Assembly: GCF_001927245.1 (NCBI RefSeq)
Contig: NZ_MJUX01000010.1
Location: 62,001 to 126,000 of the forward strand
Origin: Acuticoccus yangtzensis
Lineage (GTDB): Bacteria; Pseudomonadota; Alphaproteobacteria; Rhizobiales; Amorphaceae
Direction of reading: 5' to 3'
Length of the DNA: 64,000 nucleotides
Shown: piece by piece, positions 3,499-59,910 of the stretch
How positions within the stretch are numbered: position 1 is the stretch's first letter
How the letters are laid out: every line of letters begins with the position of its first letter
Position numbers and translations under genes: made by a program
Notes under the pieces: generated by a model
The model's database searches: none
The model's input: the letters and a program-made list of their open reading frames with translations, nothing else
Told to the model about the DNA's origin: nothing

Positions 3499-3621
3499 GG
3501 AAGAACCGTCTCCGGCATCGTCGACATCATCATGATCGCTGTCCCTTTTCGCGCCCGCGTGACCCGCCATTGGCAGGCCGCGGGCGCAGGCGCAAGGGAA
3601 GGGACCGCGATCACGGGGCGA

Positions 3622-3963
3622 TCAGTTGGTGATCATCTCGCTGGAGGTGACGAGCAGCGTGTCCGCCTCGCGGCTGATCTCGACCGCGACCGGGGACAGG
3701 CCCGCCTCGCGCGGGGTCGACAGGGTCAGGCTCTGGCCCGGCGCCAGGAGACCGCTGACGCGCACCGGGGTGCCGCCCTCGCCTTCGACCAAAGTCGCGA
3801 CGACGCGGAAGCCCTGCGGCTCGATGGTGTAGTAGGCGACGCCCGACACGGCGCCGAGGTCGAGAAGATGGGCCGCGCTCGGGGTGGTGTCACCGGCCAA
3901 GGCGGGGGTGGCGCCGAGGGCGACGGTGGCGAGGAAGGGGGCGAGCTTCGAAGCGAAGGACAT
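3622..3963 (-). CDS. Small exported protein of unknown function
   Basis: A 113-residue protein that begins with a clear Sec signal peptide (MSFASKLAPFLATVALG, cleavage likely after ALA near residue 23). The mature part is about 90 residues, rich in beta-type sequence and without cysteines. An AGGAGA ribosome binding site sits just upstream of the ATG. The gene is divergent from the LysR-type regulator at 4109, with about 145 bp between the two starts, the usual geometry for a regulator and its target. I do not recognise the family, so function is unknown. Confidence 0.7.
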   Translation of the reverse strand: MSFASKLAPFLATVALGATPALAGDTTPSAAHLLDLGAVSGVAYYTIEPQGFRVVATLVEGEGGTPVRVSGLLAPGQSLTLSTPREAGLSPVAVEISREADTLLVTSSEMITN

Positions 3964-4108
3964 GGGACTCTCCTGAACAAGGGGCCGGGGGTCCCGCGAC
4001 CGCACAGGCCCGGCCTCGACGAGGCGGGACCGGCGCAGCGGCGAACCGTTTGGCGTGTCCCCAGAGATCGGATGGATCGGCGCATCGATCAAACGGATAG
4101 GATGCATT

Positions 4109-5050
4109 TTGGGTATCGATGGCGTCGATCTTTCCAAGGCCGACCTCAACCTCCTGGTGCATTTCGAGGCGCTGATCGCCGAACGCAGCGTGACGCGGGC
4201 CGCCGCGCGTGTCGGGCTCAGCCAGTCGGCGATGAGCCACAACCTCGCCCGCCTGCGTCAACTGTTCGATGATGAGCTTCTGGTGCGGGGTCCGGACGGT
4301 CTGCGTCCGACGCCGCGGGCCATGGCGCTGGCCGAGCCTGTCGATGCGGCGCTGAGGGACATCCGCGCCCTCCTCGCCCGCGACGAGACATTCGATCCCG
4401 GCACCGCGGTGCGCACCTTCCGCCTCGGACTGCCCGATTCCATGGAAATGCTGATCGGCCCGGCGCTTCTCGCCCATTTGCGGGCGCATGCGCCGGGTAT
4501 CGGGCTGCATCTTCAGACCATCGATTCGGCCGGTCTGCTCGACGATCTCGATGCCGACCGGATCGAGCTCGCCATCGGCTACGGCGACTTTCCGCACGGG
4601 CGGGCGCACCACAAGTGGCGCCTTCTGATGTCGGAGAGCTATGTGACGATGTTTTCCGCGGCGCAGACCGGGCTGTCGGCGCCGATCTCATTAGACGACT
4701 ATTTAAGCGTGCCGCACATCCTGACGAGCCTGCGCCATGGCGAAGGGGTGCGCGGTGTGGTGGACGATGCGTTGGAGCCGCTCGGTCTCAGCCGCACGGT
4801 GGTGCTGACGACGCCGCACTTTTTGAGTGTACCGGCCCTCGTGGCGCGGGCGCCTGTCCTGGTGACGATGCATGCCCGCGTGGCGCGGTTGTTCGCGGAG
4901 GCCTACACGCTGGACCTCAGTCCGCCGCCGGTGGAGATCGACGACGTTGCGGTGTCGCTGTTGTGGCATGCCTCGCGCGACCGGGATCCGGCTCATGCCT
5001 GGCTGCGCCAGCTTCTCGTCGGTCTGGTGGGTGAATTGCGCGGCGGCTGA
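4109..5050 (+). CDS. LysR-family transcriptional regulator
   Basis: The product has the N-terminal winged helix-turn-helix of LysR regulators (DLNLLVHFEALIAERSVTRA, then ARVGLSQSAMSHNLARLRQL) and a C-terminal substrate-binding-like domain of about 200 residues. With the TTG at 4109, preceded by an AGGA box about six bases upstream, it is 313 residues, the normal length. A GTG at 4055 would add 18 residues with no visible ribosome binding site. The gene is divergent from the small exported protein at 3622-3963, which is its most likely target. The effector cannot be deduced. Confidence 0.88.
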   Translation: MGIDGVDLSKADLNLLVHFEALIAERSVTRAAARVGLSQSAMSHNLARLRQLFDDELLVRGPDGLRPTPRAMALAEPVDAALRDIRALLARDETFDPGTAVRTFRLGLPDSMEMLIGPALLAHLRAHAPGIGLHLQTIDSAGLLDDLDADRIELAIGYGDFPHGRAHHKWRLLMSESYVTMFSAAQTGLSAPISLDDYLSVPHILTSLRHGEGVRGVVDDALEPLGLSRTVVLTTPHFLSVPALVARAPVLVTMHARVARLFAEAYTLDLSPPPVEIDDVAVSLLWHASRDRDPAHAWLRQLLVGLVGELRGG

Positions 5051-8351: not shown

Positions 8352-8633
8352 ATGGCCGACACGTCACATTCCTCATCCTTGACGGCGGAGGGTGAGGCCT
8401 ACTGGAAGGCCAATCTGCGCCTGATCGTGGGTTGCCTGATCGTCTGGGGCATCGTCAGCTTCGGCTTCGGGATCCTGCTTCGCCCGCTGTTGTCGGGCAT
8501 TGCGGTCGGCGGCACGGATCTCGGCTTCTGGTTCGCGCAGCAGGGGTCCATTCTGGTCTTCCTGGTGCTGATCTTTTTCTATGCGTTTCGGATGAACAGC
8601 CTCGACCGCACGCACGGCGTGGACGAGGAGTAA
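8352..8633 (+). CDS. DUF4212 small membrane subunit of a sodium-solute symporter
   Basis: A 93-residue protein with two predicted transmembrane segments (LIVGCLIVWGIVSFGFGILL and, after a GTDLGFWFAQQ turn, SILVFLVLIFFYAF) and a short acidic tail. This is the pattern of the DUF4212 family, which is encoded immediately before VC_2705-type symporters and is thought to be their small subunit. The start is the ATG in GGCCGATGGCC, preceded by AAGGAGGGCGG. The stop lies six bases before the symporter start, so the two are coupled. Location is the inner membrane. Confidence 0.9.
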   Translation: MADTSHSSSLTAEGEAYWKANLRLIVGCLIVWGIVSFGFGILLRPLLSGIAVGGTDLGFWFAQQGSILVFLVLIFFYAFRMNSLDRTHGVDEE

Positions 8634-33917: not shown

Positions 33918-34861
33918 AACGCCTGCCGCCGCGGCGGCGCCGCCGCCTGCCGCTGACGCCGCTGATCGACGTCATCTTCCTGCTCCTCCTCTTCTTCATG
34001 CTGTCGTCGAGCTTCCTGCGCTTTGCCGAGGTGGAGGTGGCCTCGGCGGGGGCTGCGGCGGGCGGTGCGGCGAGCGGCCCGGCGGCGCTCCTCAGTCTGT
34101 CGGGCGACGGGGGCCTGACCCTCGACGGTGCCCCGGTCCCGCGCGAGACGCTGGCCGACGCGCTGCAGCGGCTGCAGGACGAGGGGACGGCGCGGCTGGT
34201 TCTGACGGCGGGGCCCGGCAGCGCGGTGCAGGACCTCGTCGACCTCCTCGCCCTGTTGGAGAGGGGACCTTTGCCGGTGGTGCTGGCGGGCGGCGGCACA
34301 GCGCCCGCCGCCGATACGCCCGGCACAAACGCGGCCACGCACGGCACAGGTGCGAGCACGCCCGGCGCAGGTGCGAGCACGCCCGGCGCAGGTGCGAGCA
34401 CGCCCGGCGCAGGCGCGGGCACGTCCGGCGCAGGTGCGGGTACCCTCGGCGTGGGTGCGGGTACCCCCGGCGCGGGTGCGGGTGCGCCCGGAGCGGGTGG
34501 GGGCACGTCCGGCGCGGGTGCGAGCACGCCCGGCGCAGGCGCGGGCACGTCCGGCGCAGGTGCGGGTACCCTCGGCGTGGGTGCGGGTACCCCCGGCGCG
34601 GGTGCGGGTGCGCCCGGAGCGGGTGGGGGCACGTCCGGCGCGGGTGCGGGCACGGCCGGCCAGGGTGCGGGAGCTCCTGGTACGAATACGGGGATCGCCG
34701 GGCGTGGCGCGTCGGGGGCTGGGGCGTCCGCTGCGGGTGAGCCGGGCGAAGGCGCGCCCGGCGCAGCTCGGTCCGGTGCGGCGGGAGCGTCTTCTGCAGG
34801 CCCCTCTTCTGCGGGGCCGTCCGGAGCGCAGAGCGCTGCGCCCGGAGGGGCACGTCCATGA
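33914..34861 (+). CDS. ExbD/TolR-type protein with repeat tail
   Basis: A 315-residue protein. It begins with the single-helix ExbD/TolR signature: a basic N terminus, PLTPLIDVIFLLLLFFMLSS with the proton-relay Asp, then a periplasmic domain to about residue 130. The remaining 180 residues are Gly/Ala/Thr/Pro repeats of 6-7 residues (GAGTPGA type). Part of the tail is a 126-bp tandem duplication (about 34411-34536 and 34537-34662). Start and stop both overlap the neighbours by four bases. The tail has no counterpart in the family and may be extended, flexible sequence in the periplasm. Confidence 0.85.
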   Translation: MKRLPPRRRRRLPLTPLIDVIFLLLLFFMLSSSFLRFAEVEVASAGAAAGGAASGPAALLSLSGDGGLTLDGAPVPRETLADALQRLQDEGTARLVLTAGPGSAVQDLVDLLALLERGPLPVVLAGGGTAPAADTPGTNAATHGTGASTPGAGASTPGAGASTPGAGAGTSGAGAGTLGVGAGTPGAGAGAPGAGGGTSGAGASTPGAGAGTSGAGAGTLGVGAGTPGAGAGAPGAGGGTSGAGAGTAGQGAGAPGTNTGIAGRGASGAGASAAGEPGEGAPGAARSGAAGASSAGPSSAGPSGAQSAAPGGARP

Positions 34862-36304: not shown

Positions 36305-36600
36305 ACTGTGCAGCGCCGACGCCAGCCGCCTCGATGGGCGGCGCCGACGCCAGCCGCGCCGGTGCGCGACGCCCACGCCAACCGCGCCGATGGGAGCGCC
36401 CACGTCAGCCACGTCGGTGTGCGGCGCCCACGCCAATCGCGCCGATGGGGGCGCTCACGTCAGCCACACCGATGTGCGGTGCCGACGCCAACCATGCCGG
36501 TGTGCGGTGCCGACGCCAGACGCAGCGATGGCGGCGCCGACGCCAGCCGTGCCGGTGCGCAGTGCCAGCGCCGACCGTGCCGGGGGCCGGCGTCAGCCGC
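36305..36600. repeat. 27-bp minisatellite running into the bphP stop codon
   Basis: Around eleven degenerate copies of a 27-bp unit (core CGACGCCAGCCGCGCCGGTG) fill the gap between the convergent WGR and bacteriophytochrome genes. The last copy includes the stop codon and final codons of the phytochrome gene (36593-36600), so the array has reached the end of that coding sequence. Confidence 0.82.
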
Positions 36601-47753: not shown

Positions 47754-47919
47754 CATGTCCGGCCGATGGTTGGCAGATGGCAACGCACCCGGAGACGGGA
47801 GAGTTGGACAGTGAGAGTTGGACGGGGACGGAAGACGAACGCCCCCTCCCCTGCCGCACCCCGGGTGACGGCCTTCGGCGATCCCCCGCGGTGAACGTCT
47901 CCCGCGCGGGGCGTCTGCC

Positions 47920-49590: not shown

Positions 49591-50610
49591 ATGCACCTCG
49601 CCCGCTTCCCGCGCCTTCACCTTGCCCACCTGCCGACCCCGCTGGAGCCGATGGACCGCCTGTCGAAGGCCCTCGGCGGCCCGCGCCTCTTCATCAAGCG
49701 CGACGACTGCACCGGCATGTCCACCGGCGGCAACAAGACCCGCAAGCTGGAATTCCTGATGGGCGAGGCCGAGGCGCTGGGCGCCGACACGGTGATCACC
49801 CAGGGCGCCACCCAGTCCAACCACGTGCGCCAGACCGCCGCCTTCTGCGCCCGCCTCGGCCTCGACTGCCACGCCGTGCTGGAGGACCGCACAGGCATTC
49901 CCGGCCCCGACTACAACGACAACGGCAACGTCCTCCTCGACCATCTGCACGGCGCAACGCTCAGTCACGTTCCGGGCGGCAGCGACATGAACGCCGCCAT
50001 GGAGGAGGTCGCGGCGCGCCTGAAGGCGGCCGGAAAGCGACCCTACATCATTCCGGGCGGCGGCTCGAACCCGGTCGGCGCGCTCGGCTACGCCAATTGC
50101 GCGCTGGAGCTGGTGCACCAGGCCAACGAGAGGAGCCTTGCCGTCGGCCTGATCGTCCACGCGACGGGAAGCGCCGGGACCCAGGCCGGTCTCGTCGCGG
50201 GTCTCCATGCGATCAACGCGCAGATCCCTCTCCTCGGCATCGGTGTCAGAGCGCCGCGGGCCAAGCAGGAGGAGAACGTCTTCGCCCTGGCGCAGGCGAC
50301 CGCGGAGAAGATCGGCGCCCCGCCGGTCCCCCGCGAGATGGTGGTGGCCAACACCGATTATGTCGGCGAGGGCTACGGCATTCCCAATGCCGGCACCATC
50401 GAGGCGATCGAGATGTTCGCCCAGTTGGAGGGGATTTTGCTCGACCCGGTCTATTCGGGGAAGGGTGCGGCGGGGTTGATCGACCTCGTGCGTCGCGGGG
50501 TCATCGGCAAGGAGGAGACGGTGGTGTTCGTCCACACCGGCGGCTCGGCCGGGCTGTTCGGCTACCGCACCGCCTTCGCCGGGGCGGACACCACCGCGAA
50601 GGCGGCGTAG
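49591..50610 (+). CDS. PLP-dependent D-cysteine desulfhydrase / L-cysteate sulfo-lyase family (CuyA-like)
   Basis: A 339-residue fold-type II PLP enzyme of the ACC deaminase/D-cysteine desulfhydrase group. The PLP lysine lies in [15 protein letters not shown]. Also visible are [14 protein letters not shown], the phosphate-binding [13 protein letters not shown] and the C-terminal [13 protein letters not shown]. The start [20 protein letters not shown] is typical of proteins annotated as L-cysteate sulfo-lyase (CuyA) or D-cysteine desulfhydrase. I cannot decide between those activities from sequence alone. Both release sulfite or sulfide plus ammonia and pyruvate. The stop is 27 bp before the parS-like array. 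Confidence 0.85.
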
Positions 50611-50637
50611 GGGGCAGCCGACAACCGGGGCGGCGGC

Positions 50638-50955
50638 GTTGTCACCTGACAACCGGGTGGCGTCGTTGTCACCTGACAACCGGGTGGCGGCGTTGGCACC
50701 TGCCAACCGGGGCGGCGGCGTTGGCACCTGACAACCGGGGCGGCGGCGTTGTCACCTGACAACCGGGGCGGCGGCGTTGTCACCTGACAACCGGGCGGCG
50801 GCGTTGTCACCTGCCAACCGGGGCGGCGGCGTTGTCACCTGCCAACCGGGCGACGGCGTTGTCACCTGACAACCGGGGCGGCGCCGTTGTCGGCTGACAA
50901 CCGGGCGGCGGCGTTGTCGGCTGACAACCGGGTGGCGGCGTTGTCACCTGACAAC
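50638..50955. repeat. parS: Array of 12 parS-like 16-bp palindromes (partition centromere candidate)
   Basis: Sites start at 50638, 50665, 50692, 50720, 50748, 50776, 50803, 50831, 50858, 50886, 50913 and 50940, so spacing is always 27 or 28 bp. The main form is GTTGTCACCTGACAAC. Those at 50886 and 50913 read GTTGTCGGCTGACAAC and fit the repABC parS consensus GTTnnnnGCnnnnAAC exactly; the other ten differ only at one central base. Spacers are CGGGTGGCGGC-like. Four sites carry arm variants, and in the one at 50692 both arms changed together (GTTGGCA with TGCCAAC). The array lies between two convergent genes, 1.8 kb from repA, and an isolated perfect site occurs between repA and repB. Confidence 0.75.
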
Positions 50956-50991
50956 TGGGCGGCGGCGTTGCCGGTGGTGACGGCGCGGCCC

Positions 50992-52332
50992 TCAGAGGGC
51001 CCAGAGGGGGTCGAAGCGGGTGGCCTCCGCGGCCGCATCGGCGAACCCCTCGGCGGCGATCAAGGAGAGCGGGCCGTCCTCCACACCGGCGCCGCCGCGC
51101 TCCACGTCGACCGTCCCGGCCTCGGTGTCGATGACGAAAGAATAGAGCCCGTTCGGCCCTTGGAAGCCGCCCGCGCGCGGGAAATAGAACTGGGTGGTGA
51201 CGAGCAATTCACCGTCGAAATGCTCAGGCGTCTCGAACCAGCGCACCGGGGCGCGCCCGAACAGAGGCGGCACGTCCAAGATCGCCTCCTCGGCCCACGT
51301 CGCGCCGCCGTCCTCGCTCTTCAGAACCACCAGGGTGCCGGCCTCGTAGTCGTCATAGGTCATGTAGAGGTCGCCGTTCGCATCGGCGCTCATCTGCACC
51401 GAGGTGACGTGGACGCCGACGCTGGCGGCCGGCGTCGCCCCCTCGCTCCACAGCCCGGTTTCGCCGTCATAATGGAGAAGATTGATGGTGTTGCTCTGGG
51501 TGACGGCGGCCATGATGATGTCGCCGTCCACGCTGGTGGTGGAGAAGTGGCTGGCATAAAGACCGAGGGCACCTTCGGAATCGATCTCCTCATAGGTGAA
51601 GCCGCCTTCGTTGGGGTCGAAGACGATCCAGTAGGTGTGGTCCGGGTTCACGTAGAGGACGCCGAAGCCGTCCGGCGTCTGAAGAGCGCGCAGCGAGCCG
51701 ACGTCGGCCTCGGTGTCGAGCTCGTCGAAGGTGACCCAGTTCTGGCCGCTATTGCTGGCGGCGAGGACACCGCGCACGCCCTCTTCGGTGCTGACATTGT
51801 AGGCCACGAGGAGCGCCCCGTTGGCCCCCTCGGCGATGGTCGGGTTGGTGATCGCGGCGTCGATCCCGCCTTCCACGACCTCTGATGTGGCGGTGGTGCG
51901 CCAGCGCATGTCCTGCGCGTCGTAGGTCATCTCGCGGTAGGTGATGCCGCCCTCGTCGTTGACGAAGACCATGTGCATGGCGTCTTCGCCGGCGACGAGG
52001 CGCACGTCGGAGGAGGAGTCCGGCGCAGCGCCCCGAATGCGCGCGGAGACGTCCCAGCTCTCCCCGTTGTCGGTGCTGGTGAGGATGGTGATGCGCCTGT
52101 CGCCGGCGAGGTTGACGACGAGGTGCATCTCGCCCCCCGACGTTTCGACGATGTGGTCCTGCATGCGCGAGACGATCATCTTGGGCGCATTGCGGGTGAG
52201 ACTGGGCAGGATGAGCCCTTCGCCGATGATGGCGCCCTCGCTCTGCAAAAGGCCGGGGGCGGAGGTGCCGAGCCCGCTGCGCTCGGGGCTCCCGCGTTCG
52301 AGGCTGCTCGTCTCACGCTCAAACAGGGGCAT
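50992..52332 (-). CDS. Asp-box (sialidase-like) beta-propeller protein, paralogue 1
   Basis: A 446-residue protein with Asp-box motifs (TSTDNGESW, SEDGGATW) typical of six-bladed sialidase/BNR propellers. It lacks a signal peptide and the catalytic FRIP arginine pattern, so enzymatic sialidase activity is not supported. Shared blocks with the proteins at 56029-57255 and 57335-58849 are SRMQDHIVETSGGEMHLVVN, GALLVAYN, LYASHFSTT and the C-terminal LYSFVIDTE. The start MPLFERETS matches MPLFARESS of paralogue 2. It is transcribed away from repA, with about 450 bp between them. A carbohydrate-binding or surface role is plausible but unproven. Confidence 0.75.
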   Translation of the reverse strand: MPLFERETSSLERGSPERSGLGTSAPGLLQSEGAIIGEGLILPSLTRNAPKMIVSRMQDHIVETSGGEMHLVVNLAGDRRITILTSTDNGESWDVSARIRGAAPDSSSDVRLVAGEDAMHMVFVNDEGGITYREMTYDAQDMRWRTTATSEVVEGGIDAAITNPTIAEGANGALLVAYNVSTEEGVRGVLAASNSGQNWVTFDELDTEADVGSLRALQTPDGFGVLYVNPDHTYWIVFDPNEGGFTYEEIDSEGALGLYASHFSTTSVDGDIIMAAVTQSNTINLLHYDGETGLWSEGATPAASVGVHVTSVQMSADANGDLYMTYDDYEAGTLVVLKSEDGGATWAEEAILDVPPLFGRAPVRWFETPEHFDGELLVTTQFYFPRAGGFQGPNGLYSFVIDTEAGTVDVERGGAGVEDGPLSLIAAEGFADAAAEATRFDPLWAL

Positions 52333-52789
52333 CGCCGGTCTCCTTGGTGGGGAAGGACGGGAAGTGGCTGTGTCTGCGCTCGATCGAGTCCTGGATGTCT
52401 ATGGGAGGCGGCGCAGACCTTGAGTTGATGTGAAGGCGTTCATGCAATCTGTATGAAATTAATGCCAATCACAATTCATTCGGCGCCTCTTCGAACCTCC
52501 TCCGGCGCCCCGTCCGTGCGTCTTCGCCGCCTGTCGATCGTCGCGGCGGGGGCCGGACCGGTGCGGCACGGGCGCTGCGGTTAACCTCGCCTTAGCCCTC
52601 ACGGCCGATAGAATGGCTCACGCAACCGGGAGGCGGTGGCGTGGATCGGTGTGAACGGACGGGTCGGCGCAAAACGGCGCTGCGACGCGTGAGCGCCAGG
52701 CCCCGTGCCAGGCCGCCGCGTCAGGCGCCGGCACGCCATCCGCATCACGCCACGCGACAGGTGGCACGACAGGCGGCACGGCAAGCATC
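52333..52789. other. Divergent intergenic region between Asp-box paralogue 1 and repA
   Basis: About 455 bp without a supportable gene. An AT-richer stretch at 52430-52490 may hold the promoter of the minus-strand gene. Short repeats of GGCACGACAGGCGGCACG type lie at about 52750-52790, just before the repA start. I see no parS-like palindrome here. Confidence 0.5.
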
Positions 52790-54052
52790 ATGGCGGGCAC
52801 GATGACAGGCGCAGCAGGCACTTTCACAGGCTCCGGGCTCCACGCGGGCGGGCCGGTCGGGTTCGCGACCATCGCCGGGGACGCGGCGACCTTGAGCGCG
52901 CAGATCGCGCGGTTGCGGGCGCAGATCTTCCAGCCCGACCTCACCAAGACGTTGCGCCCCTTCACCAGCCAGGAGGCGGCCAAGCTGCTCGGCGTCACCG
53001 ATTCCTATCTGCGCCACATGGCGCGGGGAGGGGAGGGGCCGGAGCCCTCGCGCCTGCCGGGCAACCGCCACGCCTACAGCCTTTCCCAGGTGGAGGAGCT
53101 GCGCACCTATCTGGCGCGCAAGGGCGGGGCGAAGTCGCGGGTGATCCTGCCGGGGCGCCCGGCCGGGGAGCCGGCGCAGATCGTCGCCGTGGCCAACTTC
53201 AAGGGCGGCTCGGGCAAGACGACGACGACGGTTCACCTCGCCCAGCACCTCGCCATGCGCGGCTTCAGGGTGCTGGCGGTCGACCTCGACCCGCAGGCCT
53301 CGCTGTCGTCGCTGTTCGGCTACCAGCCGGAGGCGGACGTGTCCTCGGGCGAGACGCTCTACGGGGCGATCCGCTACGACGCGCCGCGCCCGGTCGAGGA
53401 GGTCATCCGGCGGACCTATTTCCCGAACCTCGACCTCGTGCCGGGCAATCTGGAGCTGCACGAGTTCGAGCACGAGACGCCACGCGCCTTGATGGAGAGG
53501 GGGACGCGGGAGATTCCCTTCTATAGCCGCGTCGCCACGGCGCTGCGGTCGGTGCAGATGGACTACGACGTCGTCCTGATCGACTGCCCGCCGCAGCTCG
53601 GTTTTCTGACGCTGGGTGCGCTCTGCGCGGCGTCGGGCGTTCTCGTGACGGTGCATCCGCAGATGCTGGACATCGCCTCGATGAGCCAGTTTCTCAACAT
53701 GACCGCGGATCTGATGGACGTGGTGCGGCGGGCGGGCGCCAACGTGGAGCTCGACTTCTTCCGCTATGTGCTGACGCGCTATGAGCCGAAGGACGGGCCG
53801 CAGGCGCAGGTGGCGGGTTTCCTGCGCTCCTTGTTCGGCGAGCGGGTGCTGACCAACGCGATGGTGAAGTCGACCGCGCTGGCCGATGCGGGGCTTTCCA
53901 AGCAGACCCTTTACGAGGTCGGGCGGGAAGGGATGACCCGCTCCACCTACGACCGTGCGCTGGAGTCGCTGGATGCGGTGAACGGCGAGATCGAGGGGCT
54001 GATCCGCGCCGTGTGGGAGGAGCGCCGCGCGCCGGCGGAGGCGGCCGAATGA
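52790..54052 (+). CDS. repA: Plasmid-type partition ATPase RepA (ParA family, repABC type)
   Basis: A 420-residue protein. Residues 50-110 form a MerR-like winged helix with RepA-type sequence (LRPFTSQEAAKLLGVTDSYL, then EPSRLPGNRHAYSLSQVEEL). A ParA ATPase domain follows, with deviant Walker A KGGSGKTTT at 138-146, Asp in VDLDPQASLSSLFG, and VLIDCPPQLGFL. RepA segregates the replicon together with RepB and parS and represses its own promoter. The architecture is that of repABC replicons rather than chromosomal Soj. The stop is 217 bp before repB, with a perfect parS palindrome between them. Confidence 0.92.
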   Translation: MAGTMTGAAGTFTGSGLHAGGPVGFATIAGDAATLSAQIARLRAQIFQPDLTKTLRPFTSQEAAKLLGVTDSYLRHMARGGEGPEPSRLPGNRHAYSLSQVEELRTYLARKGGAKSRVILPGRPAGEPAQIVAVANFKGGSGKTTTTVHLAQHLAMRGFRVLAVDLDPQASLSSLFGYQPEADVSSGETLYGAIRYDAPRPVEEVIRRTYFPNLDLVPGNLELHEFEHETPRALMERGTREIPFYSRVATALRSVQMDYDVVLIDCPPQLGFLTLGALCAASGVLVTVHPQMLDIASMSQFLNMTADLMDVVRRAGANVELDFFRYVLTRYEPKDGPQAQVAGFLRSLFGERVLTNAMVKSTALADAGLSKQTLYEVGREGMTRSTYDRALESLDAVNGEIEGLIRAVWEERRAPAEAAE

Positions 54053-54080
54053 GGGCGCGGGCGGACGTCCGGCGTCCCCG

Positions 54081-54096
54081 GTTGTCAGCTGACAAC
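54081..54096. promoter_or_regulatory. parS: Perfect parS palindrome between repA and repB
   Basis: GTTGTCAGCTGACAAC is a perfect 16-bp palindrome matching the repABC parS consensus GTTnnnnGCnnnnAAC. It sits 28 bp after the repA stop, a position known for parS sites in some repABC plasmids. It is the only isolated site seen in the window and is the parent form of the array at 50638-50955. Confidence 0.85.
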
Positions 54097-54269
54097 CCGC
54101 ATGCGGCGGCTCCCCTTCATCAGGCGGCTTCTCGGCATCAGGCGGTCCCCCCTCATCAAGCGGCCACCCAGCATCAGGTTGCTTTCGGACGCTCATCCGG
54201 CGGCCGGGCGGTTTCTCCCCGCGGCATCCGGACGAGGGGCGCCTGTGGCATCTGGAGGAGGAGAGAGCG

Positions 54270-55373
54270 ATGACCAAGCGCCGTCTGGCCATGGAGCGTC
54301 TTCTCCACGTCGCCCCTGCGGGGGAGGCGCCCGGTGCGCCCTCGGCGATGCACCCCGCAGCGCCGCTTCACGCGGGATCGCCGCATTCGGGAGCCGCACC
54401 GTCCGGGTCCATGCCGTCCGGAGCCATGCACGCGGGGGCCATGCACGCGGGAGCGATGCATTCAGGTCCGGTGCGCTCGGGTGCGGTGCGCACGATGGGG
54501 CTGGCGCTCGACAGGCTGACCGATCCGGCGGCGGCGCTGGAAAGCGTCATCGAGATCGAGACTGGGCTGATCGACCCGTCTTTCGTGCGCGACAGGCTGG
54601 ACGATCCGGATCCGTCTTCGGGCAGCGCGGAGGCGGCGGACGATGATCCGACAGGCATCGAGGCGCTGGCGAGGAGCATTGCCGAGGGCGGGCAGGCGGT
54701 GCCGATCCTGGTGCGGCCGCATCCGGACGATGCGGGGCGTTATCAGATCGCCTACGGGCACCGGCGCTGGCGGGCGTGCCGGATGCTGGGGCGTCCGGTC
54801 AGGGCGATCGTGCGTCCGCTGGGCGACGAGGATCTGGTTCTGGCGCAGGGGCGGGAGAACAACGCCCGGCGCGATCTGACCTTCATCGAGCGCGCTCATT
54901 TCGCGGCGGCTCTGGTGGGGCGGGGGATGGCGCGTCCCGTGGCGGGCAAGGCGCTGGGGGTCGACAAGTCGGAGCTGGCGCGGCTGCTCGCCGTCGCGGG
55001 CGGGTTGCCGGAGGGGTTGGCGCTGCTGATCGGCAGGGCGCCGAAGGCGGGGCGGCCGCGCTGGCTGCGTCTGGTGGAGTTGATCAAGGCCGATGCGGGG
55101 GGCGCGGAGGCGGCGCTCACGGCGGCGGCGGCGTCGTCTCATCTGGCAAGTGACGCGCGCTTCAAGGCGGTGTTCGAGGTGCTGACGGCGCGTCAGCGGG
55201 CAGCGGGTCCGTTGTTGCGGGCGCCGGCGGCGGATCCGGCTCCGGTGGAGGTGGCGCACAAGGCGGGGCACACGGTGATCACCATCGACACGGCGAGGGC
55301 GCCGGAGTTCGGTGTCTTCGTGGCGGGTCAGATGGAGGCTCTCTACCGCCGTTTCCGCACCGGCAAGAGCTGA
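54270..55373 (+). CDS. repB: Plasmid-type partition protein RepB (ParB family)
   Basis: A 367-residue centromere-binding protein. The N-terminal 75 residues hold a repeat (SGAMHAGAMHAGAMHSGPVR) that is not typical of the family. The ParB core has YQIAYGHRRWRACRMLG (GHRR CTPase motif at 163-166) and ENNARRDLTFIERAHFAA. A helix-turn-helix follows (VAGKALGVDKSELARLLAVA), then the RepB C terminus (EALYRRFRTGKS). It should bind and spread from the parS palindromes. No repC replication initiator follows, although it is normally the next gene. Confidence 0.9.
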   Translation: MTKRRLAMERLLHVAPAGEAPGAPSAMHPAAPLHAGSPHSGAAPSGSMPSGAMHAGAMHAGAMHSGPVRSGAVRTMGLALDRLTDPAAALESVIEIETGLIDPSFVRDRLDDPDPSSGSAEAADDDPTGIEALARSIAEGGQAVPILVRPHPDDAGRYQIAYGHRRWRACRMLGRPVRAIVRPLGDEDLVLAQGRENNARRDLTFIERAHFAAALVGRGMARPVAGKALGVDKSELARLLAVAGGLPEGLALLIGRAPKAGRPRWLRLVELIKADAGGAEAALTAAAASSHLASDARFKAVFEVLTARQRAAGPLLRAPAADPAPVEVAHKAGHTVITIDTARAPEFGVFVAGQMEALYRRFRTGKS

Positions 55374-55585
55374 GGCCGTCTCCGGCGGCCATCTCTCCGA
55401 TGGCCCCCTTTGGGGTCCACTCCGATGCCCCCCTCTCGACGGCCTTTCCGGACCGCCACGGCCGCGCGTCGCGGGCTTTCGTGGCACGGCGTTTCGGCTT
55501 TCCTGCGCCACGGCACGGGGGTGCCTGGTGTCTGTTCCTCGGAGCCGCCCTCGCTGATGCCCGTCAGCGCCGGGCGGCGGCGGGC

Positions 55586-55699
55586 TGCAAGGGTTCAAGC
55601 GCAGCGGCCCTTGCGGCCTGGCGGCGGCCGGTGCAGGGCCAATCAGCGAGGGTGGCACCGAGGGACAGACGCCACCTGTTCCTTGGAGGGTCCCGAGCC
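55586..55699 (+). repeat. Dispersed repeat, family B, copy 2
   Basis: Starts with the 30-base block that is identical to the minus strand of 46249-46278 and ends with TTGGAGGGTCCCGAGCC. The middle is only loosely similar to copy 1. It lies in the 655-bp gap between repB and Asp-box paralogue 2, where repC would be expected. No gene is supportable in the gap. Confidence 0.7.
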
Positions 55700-56028
55700 T
55701 CTTCTCGTCACAGCGACGCGCGGGGGCGATGGTCTCGCCCCCGGCGATCAAATCCTCGAACCGATCCCTGGCCCGATCACACGGATCGAACCACCAGGTT
55801 TTGTGCGCCATGGGTCAGCTTATTCAAACATTCGAGGCGCTTAGCCGGCACACACGGGTTCAGGCTCAGGGATTCAAATGTTTGGCCCGATCCACTGGTT
55901 AGCTAACCGAGTTGTGAGATAAATAGATTTGCGCATGCCGCGGCGGCGTGATTGCAGATAGTCGTCAGAAGCCAGATCGGCCGGTGGCGGGACTGCCCGC
56001 CCCCGCCCGCCAGGACCAGGAGACATGG

Positions 56029-57255
56029 ATGCCCCTCTTCGCGCGTGAGTCCAGTGACCGCAGCCTGTTCAGCCGCGGGCCGTCGCAGAACGAAGGGCCG
56101 GTCGTCGACCAGGGCATCCTCATCCCCTCGCTGACGCGCAACGTGCCGCGCATGCTGGTGTCGCGCATGCAGGATCACATGGTGGAGACGTCGAACGGCG
56201 ACATTCACATGGTGGTCAATCTGGGTGGCGACCGCAGCATCGTCATTCTGACCAGCACCGACGACGGCGACAGCTGGTCGATCTCCAACCGCTATCCGGA
56301 CGCGGCCACCAACTCGTCCTCCGACGTGCGCCTGATCCCCGGCGAGGACACCATGCTGATGGTGTACGTCAACGAGAATGGCGGCATCACCTACAACGAG
56401 CTGACCTACAACGAGGACAACACGCGCTGGCGCGTCACGGAGACGTCGGAGGTGGTGGCGTCGGGTCTGGATCCGGCCTCGACCAATCCGACGATCGCGC
56501 AGGGCGGCAACGGGGCGTTGCTGGTGGCCTACAACATCAACACCGACGACGGTGTGCGCGGTGTTCTGGCCGGCAGCACCAACGGCCAGAACTGGGTGCT
56601 GTTCGACGAGCTGGACAGCGAGGCGAGCGCGGGCTCGCTGCGTGCGGTCGGCACCGGGGACGGTTTCGGCGTCATCTATGTGACGGCCGAGCACACCTAT
56701 TGGATCGAGTTCGAGGACGGCGCCTTCACCTTCGAGGAGATCGCCGACGAGGGTGCGGTCGGCATCTATGCCAGCCACTTCACCACGACGACGGTGGGGG
56801 AGGACATCTTCTTCGCCGGAGTGGGCGAGGATCTGGCGCTCAACTTCATGCATTATGACGGGGCGAGCGACACCTGGTCCGAGGCGGAGGTTCCGTCCGG
56901 GGCGGGGGTCGACATCGGCGATGTCAGCTCGGTGCAGCTCAGCGCCGATGCGGACGGCGACCTCTTCCTCACCTATGACGACTACGACACCGGCCTCATC
57001 CACATCATCACCAGCGACGACGAGGGCGAGACCTGGTCGGACGTGGCGACGCTGGACGTGCCGGACTTCCTGCGCAGCGACCCGGCCCGTTTCGAGGCGC
57101 CGGAGCATTTTGACGGTGATCTGGTGGTTGCCTATCAGTTCGCCTTCCCGCTCGCCAACGGTCTGACGGGGCTTTATTATTTCGTGGTCGACACCGAGAC
57201 GGACACGGTGACGACGGGCATTGCTCCGGAAGGCACGGATCTCGCTCTTCTCTGA
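56029..57255 (+). CDS. Asp-box (sialidase-like) beta-propeller protein, paralogue 2
   Basis: A 408-residue protein closely related to paralogue 1 at 50992-52332: the same N terminus (MPLFARESS), SRMQDHMVETSNGDIHMVVN, TSTDDGDSW, GALLVAYNINTDDGVRGVLA, TSDDEGETW and LYYFVVDTETD. The family resemblance is to BNR/Asp-box propellers. There is no signal peptide and few Cys. AGGAGA lies just before the ATG. It is followed 79 bp later by paralogue 3 on the same strand and probably shares a transcript. Function is unknown. Confidence 0.78.
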   Translation: MPLFARESSDRSLFSRGPSQNEGPVVDQGILIPSLTRNVPRMLVSRMQDHMVETSNGDIHMVVNLGGDRSIVILTSTDDGDSWSISNRYPDAATNSSSDVRLIPGEDTMLMVYVNENGGITYNELTYNEDNTRWRVTETSEVVASGLDPASTNPTIAQGGNGALLVAYNINTDDGVRGVLAGSTNGQNWVLFDELDSEASAGSLRAVGTGDGFGVIYVTAEHTYWIEFEDGAFTFEEIADEGAVGIYASHFTTTTVGEDIFFAGVGEDLALNFMHYDGASDTWSEAEVPSGAGVDIGDVSSVQLSADADGDLFLTYDDYDTGLIHIITSDDEGETWSDVATLDVPDFLRSDPARFEAPEHFDGDLVVAYQFAFPLANGLTGLYYFVVDTETDTVTTGIAPEGTDLALL

Positions 57256-57334: not shown

Positions 57335-58849
57335 ATGCCGCGCTTCGTCTGCGACAGGCTCGACAGGCCGCTTTTCGGGGCGGCGCCGCGGTCGTTGAGA
57401 GACGGGGGGTCCTTCCGCCCCGGCCCGATCATCCCGGACGACGCGCCTGATGAAGGTGACGCGGGGGTGGGGGAGGGGATCGCTGAGGTCCTCGACCAGG
57501 GCCTCATGCGTGAGAGCGTGACCTTCTACGCGCCCAAGCTGATCGTCTCGCGCATGCAGGACCACATCGTCGAGACGGCGGACGGCAACCTTCACCTCCT
57601 CGTCAATCTCGGCCGGCGCGGTCTCACCTTGTTCACGAGCAGCGACGGGGGCGCCACCTGGGCGGCGTCTCTCACCGTTCCCGGCGTGCCGGCGGACGCT
57701 TCGGCGGATCTGCGTCTTATCCCCGGCGGGGAGGGCCTTCTCATCGCCACCACGACGACGGAGCGATGGGGTGCGGACGGGTCCGACGTCACCCTCTTCG
57801 CCTATGATTATGTGCCGGCTGGCGGCGGCGGCGAAACCGCGGGCGGCGGCGGGGAGGTCGGTTTCGTCCTGGCCTCGCGCAGCATCGTCGTGACCGGGGC
57901 CGACAGCGCCACCACCAACCCCACGGTGGCGATCGAGGAAAGCGGGCGCATCGTCGTCGCCACCAGTCTCGAGGGGGATGGGGAGGGCGGTCTCACCCTG
58001 GTTCTCTCTTGGTCCGACGACGGGGGCCTCACCTGGCAGAGCGCTTCGGTGTCCGGGCCGGAGTCAGGCCCAGAGTCAGGCGTGGAGGCAGGCGAAGAAT
58101 CCGGCTTCACCTCCTCCCCGGCCGGTTCCGCCCGCGCGCTGGTGACCGCCGAGGGGACAGGCATTCTCCTTGCCACCGCCGACGCCTTCACCTTCCTCAC
58201 CTATGATGCGGCGCAGGATGTGTGGAGCGCGCAGACGCTGTCGGAGACCGGCGCCGTGGGGCGCTATGCCAGCCACTTCTCCATCGCCATGCTCGGCGCG
58301 GACATCCACGTGGCGAGCGTCGCCGAGGACGGCGTGCTGCGCCTCTTCCACTATGACGGGACCAGCGGGACGTGGAGCGCGCCGGCGGTGCCCGAGGGCG
58401 TCGTCCTCAACGAGGCGAGCAACGTGCAGATCAGTGCCGGGGCGGACGGGAGCCTGGTGCTGATCGCCGACGACCACACCGAGCTCGGCGAGTTTCCGGT
58501 CCTGCGCAGCACCGATGGCGGCGCCACGTGGAGCGAGATCCTGGTTCTGGAGCTGCCGGACGGTTTGCGGGCCGAGCCGGTGCCCTTCGACATTCCGGAT
58601 CTTCCTTTGGTGCGCTTCGAGGCGCCGGAGGCGTTCGAGGACACGCTGGCCGTGCTCGTTCAGGTGAGTGCGCCGCTGCTGCCGGGGGCGAGCGGGCTTT
58701 ATTCTTTCGTGATCGACCCGGACACCGGGACGGCGGTCGCCGGCCCCGATGACGGTACGGCGCTTTCCGTCCTTGACCGCGATGCGCCCTTCCTCGATCC
58801 GGACGGCGGTCCATCGGTTCTTGCCGCGGACACCGGCTTCCTGCTCTGA
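57335..58849 (+). CDS. Asp-box (sialidase-like) beta-propeller protein, paralogue 3
   Basis: A 504-residue, more divergent paralogue. Shared blocks are SRMQDHIVETADGNLHLLVN, TSSDGGATW, SWSDDGGLTW, RYASHFSIAMLG and RSTDGGATW. It carries a Gly/Glu repeat near residue 170 (AGGGGETAGGGGE) and a SGPESGPESGVEAGEESG repeat near 245, and ends with an extra acidic tail. It lacks a signal peptide. Position downstream of paralogue 2 suggests duplication in tandem, with paralogue 1 separated by the repAB pair. Function is unknown; surface or particle attachment is a guess. Confidence 0.75.
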   Translation: MPRFVCDRLDRPLFGAAPRSLRDGGSFRPGPIIPDDAPDEGDAGVGEGIAEVLDQGLMRESVTFYAPKLIVSRMQDHIVETADGNLHLLVNLGRRGLTLFTSSDGGATWAASLTVPGVPADASADLRLIPGGEGLLIATTTTERWGADGSDVTLFAYDYVPAGGGGETAGGGGEVGFVLASRSIVVTGADSATTNPTVAIEESGRIVVATSLEGDGEGGLTLVLSWSDDGGLTWQSASVSGPESGPESGVEAGEESGFTSSPAGSARALVTAEGTGILLATADAFTFLTYDAAQDVWSAQTLSETGAVGRYASHFSIAMLGADIHVASVAEDGVLRLFHYDGTSGTWSAPAVPEGVVLNEASNVQISAGADGSLVLIADDHTELGEFPVLRSTDGGATWSEILVLELPDGLRAEPVPFDIPDLPLVRFEAPEAFEDTLAVLVQVSAPLLPGASGLYSFVIDPDTGTAVAGPDDGTALSVLDRDAPFLDPDGGPSVLAADTGFLL

Positions 58850-58869
58850 GACCGGCGCCCGTCCGGCGG

Positions 58870-59170
58870 CGCCCCGGCCGAAGCGCGTCCGGCAGCGCCC
58901 CGGTCGGACGGGTGTCTGCGACGCCACGGCCGGACCGGCGCCTGCGACGCCATGGCCGGACCCGCGCCTGCAGCGCCCTGGCCGGACCGGCGCCTGCGAC
59001 GCCCTGGCCGGACCGGGGCCGGCGGCGCCCTGGCCGAACCGGGGCCGGCGGCGCCATGGCCGAACCGGGGCCGGCGGCGCCATGGCCGAACCGGGGCCGG
59101 CGGCGCCATGGCCGAACCGGGGCCGGCGGCGCCATGGCCGGAACGGGGCCGGCGGCGCCATGACGGAACG
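58870..59170. repeat. 26-bp minisatellite array
   Basis: About eleven copies of a 26-bp unit (core CCATGGCCGAACCGGGGCCG). The last copies are spaced exactly 26 bases apart (centres near 59056, 59082, 59108, 59134 and 59160). Because 26 is not a multiple of three, any frame changes from unit to unit, so it cannot encode a regular repeat protein. Confidence 0.85.
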
Positions 59171-59329
59171 GTGCCGGCGGCGCCGCGGCCGTGGCGGGTG
59201 GGCGTGCCGCAGCCGGGTGGGGAGGCGTCAGGTGGGCAACTTGTCCCCGCCCGCAGCGGGCGCCTTAGACTTCAGCGCGTCGACGGGGGATGGCCCCCGC
59301 ATATGGATACCGCCGAAGGAGGCGCACTG

Positions 59330-59596: not shown

Positions 59597-59619
59597 CCGC
59601 CTCACGGTCTGGCCCCTCG

Positions 59620-59910
59620 GCCGGCTGATCACTTGCGGTCCGTCCCTCGGCCGGCTCGCCACCTGCGGCACGGCCCCATGGTCGGCTCGCCGCTTGCGGT
59701 GCGCCCCCCTCGGTCGGCTGGACGCCTACGGTGCGACCCCTCGGTCAGCTCGCCGCCTACGGTGCGACCCCTCGATCGGCTCACCGCCTACGGTGAGGTT
59801 CCTCGATAGGCTCGCCACCTACGGTGCGGCCCCTCGGTCGGCTGGCCGCTTGCGGTGCGGCACCTCGGCCGGCCGCCGCCTGCGGTGTGGCCCCTTGGGC
59901 GGCCGCCTGT
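59620..59910. repeat. 30-bp minisatellite array
   Basis: About nine copies of a 30-bp unit (core CCCTCGGTCGGCTCGCCGCC) between the spike-base-like gene and the MHYT gene. Adjacent units are spaced exactly 30 bases near 59710-59770. No gene is supported in the 514-bp gap. Confidence 0.8.

What the first reader, a model, noticed from the sequence alone, without database searches (positions are those of the whole stretch)
50638..50955. Regular array of 12 parS-like palindromes next to a RepAB pair
Twelve 16-bp palindromes GTTGTCACCTGACAAC (and variants) occur with strict 27/28-bp spacing. Two match the repABC parS consensus GTTnnnnGCnnnnAAC exactly; ten have C instead of G at one central position. 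One site (50692) has changed both arms together, which points to selection on the dyad rather than simple repeat drift. repABC replicons usually have one to a few parS sites, so a helically spaced array of this size would be an unusual centromere or an incompatibility/titration element. The array lies between convergent genes, so a promoter-operator role is unlikely.
Basis: partly seen in the sequence, partly recalled or inferred. Interest (0 to 1): 0.9.

Follow-up and report, generated by a model that had tools for sequence, protein, structure and literature searches.

The report
Twelve-site tandem parS array on plasmid
Beside the partition genes of a marine bacterium's plasmid, twelve copies of the short DNA mark that its segregation protein probably recognises stand in a row, a possible young plasmid centromere that looks as if it grew by repeat expansion.

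Summary
In detail: twelve 16-bp palindromes lie 27/28 bp apart at 50638-50955, with one more site (54081) between repA and repB. In the 5.04-Mb genome the palindrome (at most 1 mismatch) occurs only there. In 3 of 7 genus-mates it also occurs, only on contigs carrying repAB, so these are RepB-type parS sites. The CC centre is no objection: the same arms with CC or GG centres stand beside repA/repB in an Acuticoccus relative and in Chelatococcus.

The units, spacers included, are nearly alike, and the contig is rich in unrelated minisatellites, so the array looks like a young tandem expansion of a parS site. Sister plasmids carry mostly scattered parS sites, two of which are missing here. Best reading: a sopC-like tandem centromere that has taken over from scattered sites. 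RepB binding and selection on the array are not shown. The paper on repABC parS distribution that I read in part reports groups of up to four.

The parts
50620..50970 (.). whole tandem array, 12.8 copies of a 27/28-bp unit, with a half site at its left end
   Evidence: TRF; fills 351 of 381 bp between stop codons
50638..50955 (.). the twelve 16-bp parS-like palindromes (starts 50638, 50665, 50692, 50720, 50748, 50776, 50803, 50831, 50858, 50886, 50913, 50940)
   Evidence: 6 of 12 have perfect arms with a CC centre, 2 of 12 are GC-centred (50886, 50913), 4 of 12 have CC and one or both arms changed
54081..54096 (.). single canonical site GTTGTCAGCTGACAAC in the repA-repB gap
   Evidence: sister plasmids also have sites in this gap
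52790..54052 (+). repA, ParA-type partition ATPase
   Evidence: TIGR03453, 596 bits, cut-off 348.45
54270..55373 (+). repB, ParB-type centromere-binding protein
   Evidence: TIGR03454, 287 bits, cut-off 201.5; PF07506 and PF02195
49504..50610 (+). left neighbour, D-cysteate sulfo-lyase (CuyA) type, stop codon 9 bp before the array
   Evidence: NF052482, 541 bits, cut-off 450
50992..52332 (-). right neighbour, BNR-repeat protein, convergent with the left one
   Evidence: PF13088, 34.5 bits, cut-off 31.4

Best explanation
The array is a cluster of twelve RepB-binding parS sites that acts as the main centromere (RepB-loading platform) of an RPA-type plasmid with a RepAB partition module; the single canonical site between repA and repB is a second, perhaps regulatory, site. 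How it would work: RepB dimers load on each dyad, the close spacing holds a dense RepB complex, and RepA-ATP on the nucleoid moves it, as SopA and SopB do with sopC of plasmid F. Origin: a canonical parS was multiplied by the same kind of tandem expansion that made the other minisatellites of this contig, while scattered parS sites still present in sister plasmids are absent here. Shown: site identity, confinement to this contig, repAB neighbourhood, likeness of the units, absence of sites at two positions where two relatives have them. Inferred: RepB binding, centromere role, membership of contig C8 (with the RPA gene) in the same plasmid, and the order of events.
For: Palindrome confined to the array and 54081 in the genome. 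Exact matches in 4 of 61 genomes, all in this genus, each on a contig with a RepB above cut-off. Sister plasmids have parS in the repA-repB gap. CC or GG centres: 2 of 4 gap sites of G007:C6 and one site 257 bp upstream of repA in Chelatococcus pTAD1, L132. Two positions with a site in both G003 and G005 have none here, best partial match 9 and 10 of 16 bases. A second, clearly older array of another palindrome lies beside parAB on contig C6 of the same genome. Precedents in print: 3parS of pAMI4 is bound by its partition protein B and needed for partition (PMC9040568, abstract and parts read); sopC has twelve 43-bp repeats (passages of PMC6238139 and PMC9178275).
Against: No binding data. 10 of 12 sites break the published central GC and no array copy has the canonical sequence. 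Arms are no clearly better kept than spacers: 9 of 192 cells against 16 of 132 (MAFFT gaps counted, P=0.02) or 11 of 132 (gap placed by hand, P=0.24). Arm changes fall on one side as often as on both. Contig C1 makes minisatellites readily. The array is in 1 of the 4 genus genomes that have this RepB and palindrome. The same palindrome in pairs also occurs in 22 viral contigs without a RepB link being known. Draft assembly: copy number could be misassembled.
Confidence: 0.55

Rival explanations
1. A neutral minisatellite that happened to expand over a parS site: RepB may bind it, but the array is not needed and its size is not selected.
For: C1 has 13 arrays of at least 5 copies including this one, 0.97 per 10 kb, against 0-0.5 in the nine other stretches sampled. 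Spacers 87% and arms 93% alike, i.e. a young array without marked constraint. At one lost parS position there is another minisatellite, window 36313-36554.
Against: Of the 13 arrays it is the only one with a 16-bp dyad in its unit (5 of 200 shuffles reach it; next longest 15 bp, 18 of 200), and the dyad is the replicon's own parS. Sister plasmids keep several parS sites, while this contig has only one outside the array.
Confidence: 0.25
2. A RepB sink: the array titrates RepB to tune repAB expression or to cause incompatibility, without being the main centromere.
For: High number of sites 1.8 kb upstream of repA; RepA with RepB represses repABC operons in Rhizobium (passages of PMC4492784).
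Against: The same passages report that parS was not needed for strong repression there. No promoter-like site was found in 50400-54400. A sink and a centromere are not exclusive.
Confidence: 0.12
3. A bidirectional terminator or an operator for some other protein, unrelated to RepB.
For: It lies between convergent genes. Pairs of the same 16-mer, 29 bp apart, occur in 22 IMG/VR contigs; in the two whose ORFs I listed a tyrosine-recombinase-like ORF lies near (read by eye), so the motif is not used by RepB alone.
Against: Neither of the 2 terminator-like sites found in 50400-54400 is in the array, and no promoter-like site was found; no Rfam match in 50000-56000; in this genus the motif goes with repAB.
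Confidence: 0.04

Closest known systems
3parS locus of Paracoccus aminophilus pAMI4 (repABC megaplasmid)
   Same: a non-coding cluster of parS sites apart from the single site in the rep operon (PMC9040568: abstract, part 1 of 6, sections 7 and 8 read)
   Different: three identical sites in a 2-kb AT-rich region 11.5 kb from repC, not a tight tandem array; binding and need for partition were shown there, not here
sopC (parS) of plasmid F
   Same: twelve tandem units each with a 16-bp inverted repeat beside the partition genes (passages of PMC6238139 and PMC9178275)
   Different: 43-bp unit, located downstream of sopB, other ParB family and other palindrome; ten of its motifs are given as ParB-bound in PMC6238139
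parS cluster of Acuticoccus plasmid NZ_CP133485 (G007:C6)
   Same: same palindrome, including CC- and GG-centred copies, beside a RepB 63% identical
   Different: four sites at uneven steps (24, 45, 45 bp) in the repA-repB gap, spacers unlike one another
parS series of Methylobacterium indicum pVL1_3 (L126)
   Same: repeated palindromes at a regular step in the repA-repB region
   Different: GTTGGCCGCGGCCAAC, two runs of three at 93 bp, one run inside the repB reading frame; seen here, not taken from print

Membership tests
RepB parS sites of repABC-type partition modules | 16-bp palindrome with arms GTTNNC...GNNAAC | tested here: met
   12 of 12 array sites and 54081 have these outer bases; consensus from PMC9040568
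RepB parS sites of repABC-type partition modules | central GC | tested here: not met
   10 of 12 array sites have CC; 2 of 12 and 54081 have GC. GG, CC, GT and AT centres do occur at repAB positions elsewhere, so I treat the feature as not strictly defining
RepB parS sites of repABC-type partition modules | linked to repA and repB and confined to their replicon | tested here: met
RepB parS sites of repABC-type partition modules | bound by the cognate RepB; cause incompatibility; stabilise in cis | not testable with these tools
   needs bench work
repABC replicon | repC in the operon with repA and repB | tested here: not met
   only RepC-family match (PF03428) is on C3; RPA initiators on C4, C8 and C6; the C8 one is 96% identical to that of the sister plasmid G003:C6
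sopC-like tandem centromere | tandem units each carrying one ParB dyad, beside parAB | tested here: met
   this says it is built like one, not that it is homologous
sopC-like tandem centromere | acts as centromere | not testable with these tools
   needs bench work
neutral minisatellite | alike tandem units with no element kept better than the rest | tested here: inconclusive
   spacers 87% and arms 93% alike; P=0.24 or 0.02 by alignment

The most novel reading that the evidence does not exclude
A tandem-repeat centromere caught soon after birth: minisatellite expansion turned a plasmid with scattered parS sites into one with a sopC-like array, built mostly of CC-centred and perhaps weaker sites, and the older scattered sites were then lost. 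It would show how array centromeres such as sopC can arise.
Probability: 0.3. Interest if true: 0.65.

Novelty: new variant of a known kind. Interest (0 to 1): 0.5.

Why it matters
Plasmid centromeres range from a single ParB site to arrays, and why is unsettled. Here sister plasmids with similar RepB proteins (64, 71 and 63% identical to this one) differ in arrangement: scattered sites (G003:C6, G005:C12), a loose cluster of four plus one (G007:C6) and a tandem dozen plus one (this contig). That makes the effect of parS number, spacing and centre sequence directly testable, and suggests repeat expansion as a route from scattered sites to an array.

Tried and rejected
Helical phasing: tested, rejected. 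Arm covariation as evidence of selection: rejected, P=0.45. repABC replicon: rejected. Array elsewhere by DNA: blastn of 50620-50970 in 72,556 plasmid records, no match. RepB in genome contigs: 2 loci, weak matches, not used. Promoter, terminator and Rfam readings: nothing in the array. Closure of C1: no overlap of the ends found. Print: 'repABC' + 'multiple parS' + 'tandem' gave 0 papers; in five further searches (two searches listed 12 of 238 and 8 of 158) no listed title describes a tandem parS array of this kind. Only PMC9040568 was read in sections; PMC6238139, PMC9499535, PMC9178275, PMC9426580, PMC9239152 and PMC4492784 were seen as passages. So 'not described before' is only as wide as that.

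Full report
1. Observation. The window holds twelve 16-bp palindromes at 50638-50955, steps 27 or 28 bp, and a perfect GTTGTCAGCTGACAAC at 54081. Up to 3 mismatches, 14 matches are found against a mean of 0.71 in shuffles; the fourteenth is a lone GTTGGCAGATGGCAAC at 47769. TRF calls one array of 12.8 copies, 50620-50970, which fills 351 of 381 bp between two convergent stop codons.

2. Place. The window is G000:C1:62001-126000; C1 has 134,530 bp and no overlapping ends were found. The two best RepB matches in the plasmid collection are Acuticoccus plasmids (Hyphomicrobiales, Amorphaceae), NZ_CP094833 (69% over residues 68-366) and NZ_CP133485. Contigs G003:C6 and G007:C6, of genomes given as the same genus, have just the lengths of those records (97,478 and 24,077 bp), so the host is probably an Acuticoccus. 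The neighbours are a CuyA-type D-cysteate sulfo-lyase gene and a BNR-repeat gene, then repA and repB.

3. Motif in genomes. With at most one mismatch the palindrome has 12 places in 5.04 Mb: 11 of 12 array sites and 54081. Exact matches occur in 4 of 61 genomes (own and 60 relatives), all in the genus; the 10 places in G003, G005 and G007 all lie on contigs with a RepB above cut-off. 10 of 61 genomes have such a RepB; the 6 outside the genus lack this palindrome. Second RepB-like genes of G005 (C2, above cut-off) and G003 (C5, just below) have no such site in the 19-20 kb fetched around them.

4. Sister plasmids. Sites with at least 12 of 14 arm bases: G003:C6 43172, 47508, 53703, 91154; G005:C12 30947, 52390, 55503, 59200, 71845; G007:C6 8518, 8542, 8587, 8632, 13993 (first 100 kb of G005:C12; a looser rule on the whole contig added none there, and two weak ones on G007:C6). 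Each has one or more in the repA-repB gap (47508; 55503; the four at 8518-8632). G007's four include one GG- and one CC-centred, with unlike spacers. Two positions with a site in both G003 and G005 (just after the phosphoglycerate-dehydrogenase gene; just after a gene ending RRGY..) have none here, best partial match 9 and 10 of 16 bases. At the second there is an unrelated 28-bp minisatellite, window 36313-36554.

5. Replicon type. The only RepC-family match of the genome is on C3. RPA initiators lie on C4, C8 and C6. The RPA of G003:C6 is 96% identical to that of C8, 45% to C4 and 33% to C6. C8 also matches G003:C6 at 29.9-32.9 kb and 40.7-46.1 kb, the latter directly upstream of repA in G003. 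So C8 is probably part of the same plasmid as C1; this is inference. The partition module is of RepABC type, the initiator of RPA type.

6. The centre. Published consensus: GTTNNCNGCNGNNAAC (PMC9040568). 10 of 12 array sites have CC. I looked at 20 other plasmids picked by hand for spread from the lists (2,839 and 1,718 records), with up to 20 kb on each side of repB. There GT, AT and GG centres stand at the usual places near repA or repB in L120, L121 and L132; L135 has one CC-centred palindrome about 14 kb from repB. On C6 of the same genome seven palindromes GTTTCGCNNGCGAAAC (one with a mismatch) lie at steps 27, 30, 30, 59, 30, 30 beside parA and parB, with six different centres. So the centre is probably free in this protein group; binding was not tested.

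7. How unusual. Pairs of GTTGNCNNNNGNCAAC with a gap of 6-36 bp: 5 of 397 genomes of the order (11 pairs here, 3 in G007, and 2, 1, 1 in three others, not checked for repAB) and 2 of 385 of the class (11 here, 1 in another). The two sets share five genomes by handle. Palindromes not beginning GTTG, or further apart, are missed. In the survey of 22 loci (the 20 plus two Acuticoccus) the most sites in 400 bp was 4 (L126, L013) and 3 of 22 had none. L126 has two runs of three at 93 bp. PMC9040568 (115 complete plasmids in its first set) reports up to four repeats downstream of repC. A cluster of four parS2 sites of Agrobacterium is mentioned in PMC9239152 (passage).

8. Age and selection. On C1 the arms are 93% and the spacers 87% identical between copies; on C6 98% and 48% (of six C6 gaps the 43-bp one was left out). 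The C6 array thus shows kept arms and free spacers, as an old functional array should; the C1 array looks recent, and constraint on its arms is not shown: 9 of 192 palindrome cells depart from the majority against 16 of 132 spacer cells in the MAFFT alignment (P=0.02) or 11 of 132 with the gap placed by hand (P=0.24). C1 holds 13 arrays of at least 5 copies, this one included (0.97 per 10 kb); nine other stretches sampled have 0-0.5 per 10 kb. Among the 13 it has the longest dyad in its unit, 16 bp; the next is 15 bp.

9. Reading. By sequence and linkage the sites are parS sites. Both array variants (ACCT and GGCT at the centre) are one change from the canonical AGCT form, so a canonical copy is the likely seed (inference). 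With one canonical site outside it on C1, and the weak 47769 match left aside, the array holds 12 of 13 sites and is the likely main loading place of RepB. The pAMI4 case supports a division of labour between an operon site and a separate cluster. Against this stand the CC centres, the likeness of spacers and arms, and the many minisatellites of the contig; hence 0.55 for the centromere reading and 0.25 for a neutral repeat.

10. Known or new. In build it works like sopC of F; by protein family it is a RepAB module; within that it is a variant that I did not find in what I searched and read. Membership in the repABC replicons fails on repC.

Noticed in passing
L150 (G000:C6) 3876-4097: A second array in the same genome: seven GTTTCGCNNGCGAAAC palindromes (one with a mismatch) beside parA and parB of an RPA plasmid, arms kept, spacers and centres free. 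5 of 7 lie in the gap between the listed ORFs, 2 inside the first codons of the listed parB ORF, whose true start may be later. The motif is not confined to C6: 7 of 15 exact places are on other contigs.
   Followed up: partly
L165-L186 (22 IMG/VR contigs): Two GTTGTCANNTGACAAC palindromes 29 bp apart at a conserved place in GC-rich viral contigs, near a tyrosine-recombinase-like ORF in the two looked at (by eye). Possibly an operator or attachment element that uses the same dyad.
   Followed up: partly
G000:C1, in the window for example 34316-34671, 58863-59191, 59597-59907: Contig C1 is unusually rich in GC-rich minisatellites of unrelated units, 13 arrays of at least 5 copies, 4% of its bases.
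   Followed up: partly
L126 (Methylobacterium indicum pVL1_3) 3554-4183: Six parS-like palindromes in two runs at 93 bp, one run within the repB reading frame, where the dyad encodes a repeated KLAAAN-like motif.
   Followed up: partly
window 36313-36554: A 28-bp minisatellite sits just after a gene behind which two sister plasmids have a parS site.
   Followed up: partly
window 50992-52332, 55948-57255, 57335-58849: Three BNR-repeat genes surround repAB; in the sister plasmid G003:C6 their relatives lie together at 87.2-90.3 kb, far from repAB.
   Followed up: no
window 47769-47784: A lone GTTGGCAGATGGCAAC, two mismatches from the pattern; a decayed site or chance.
   Followed up: no
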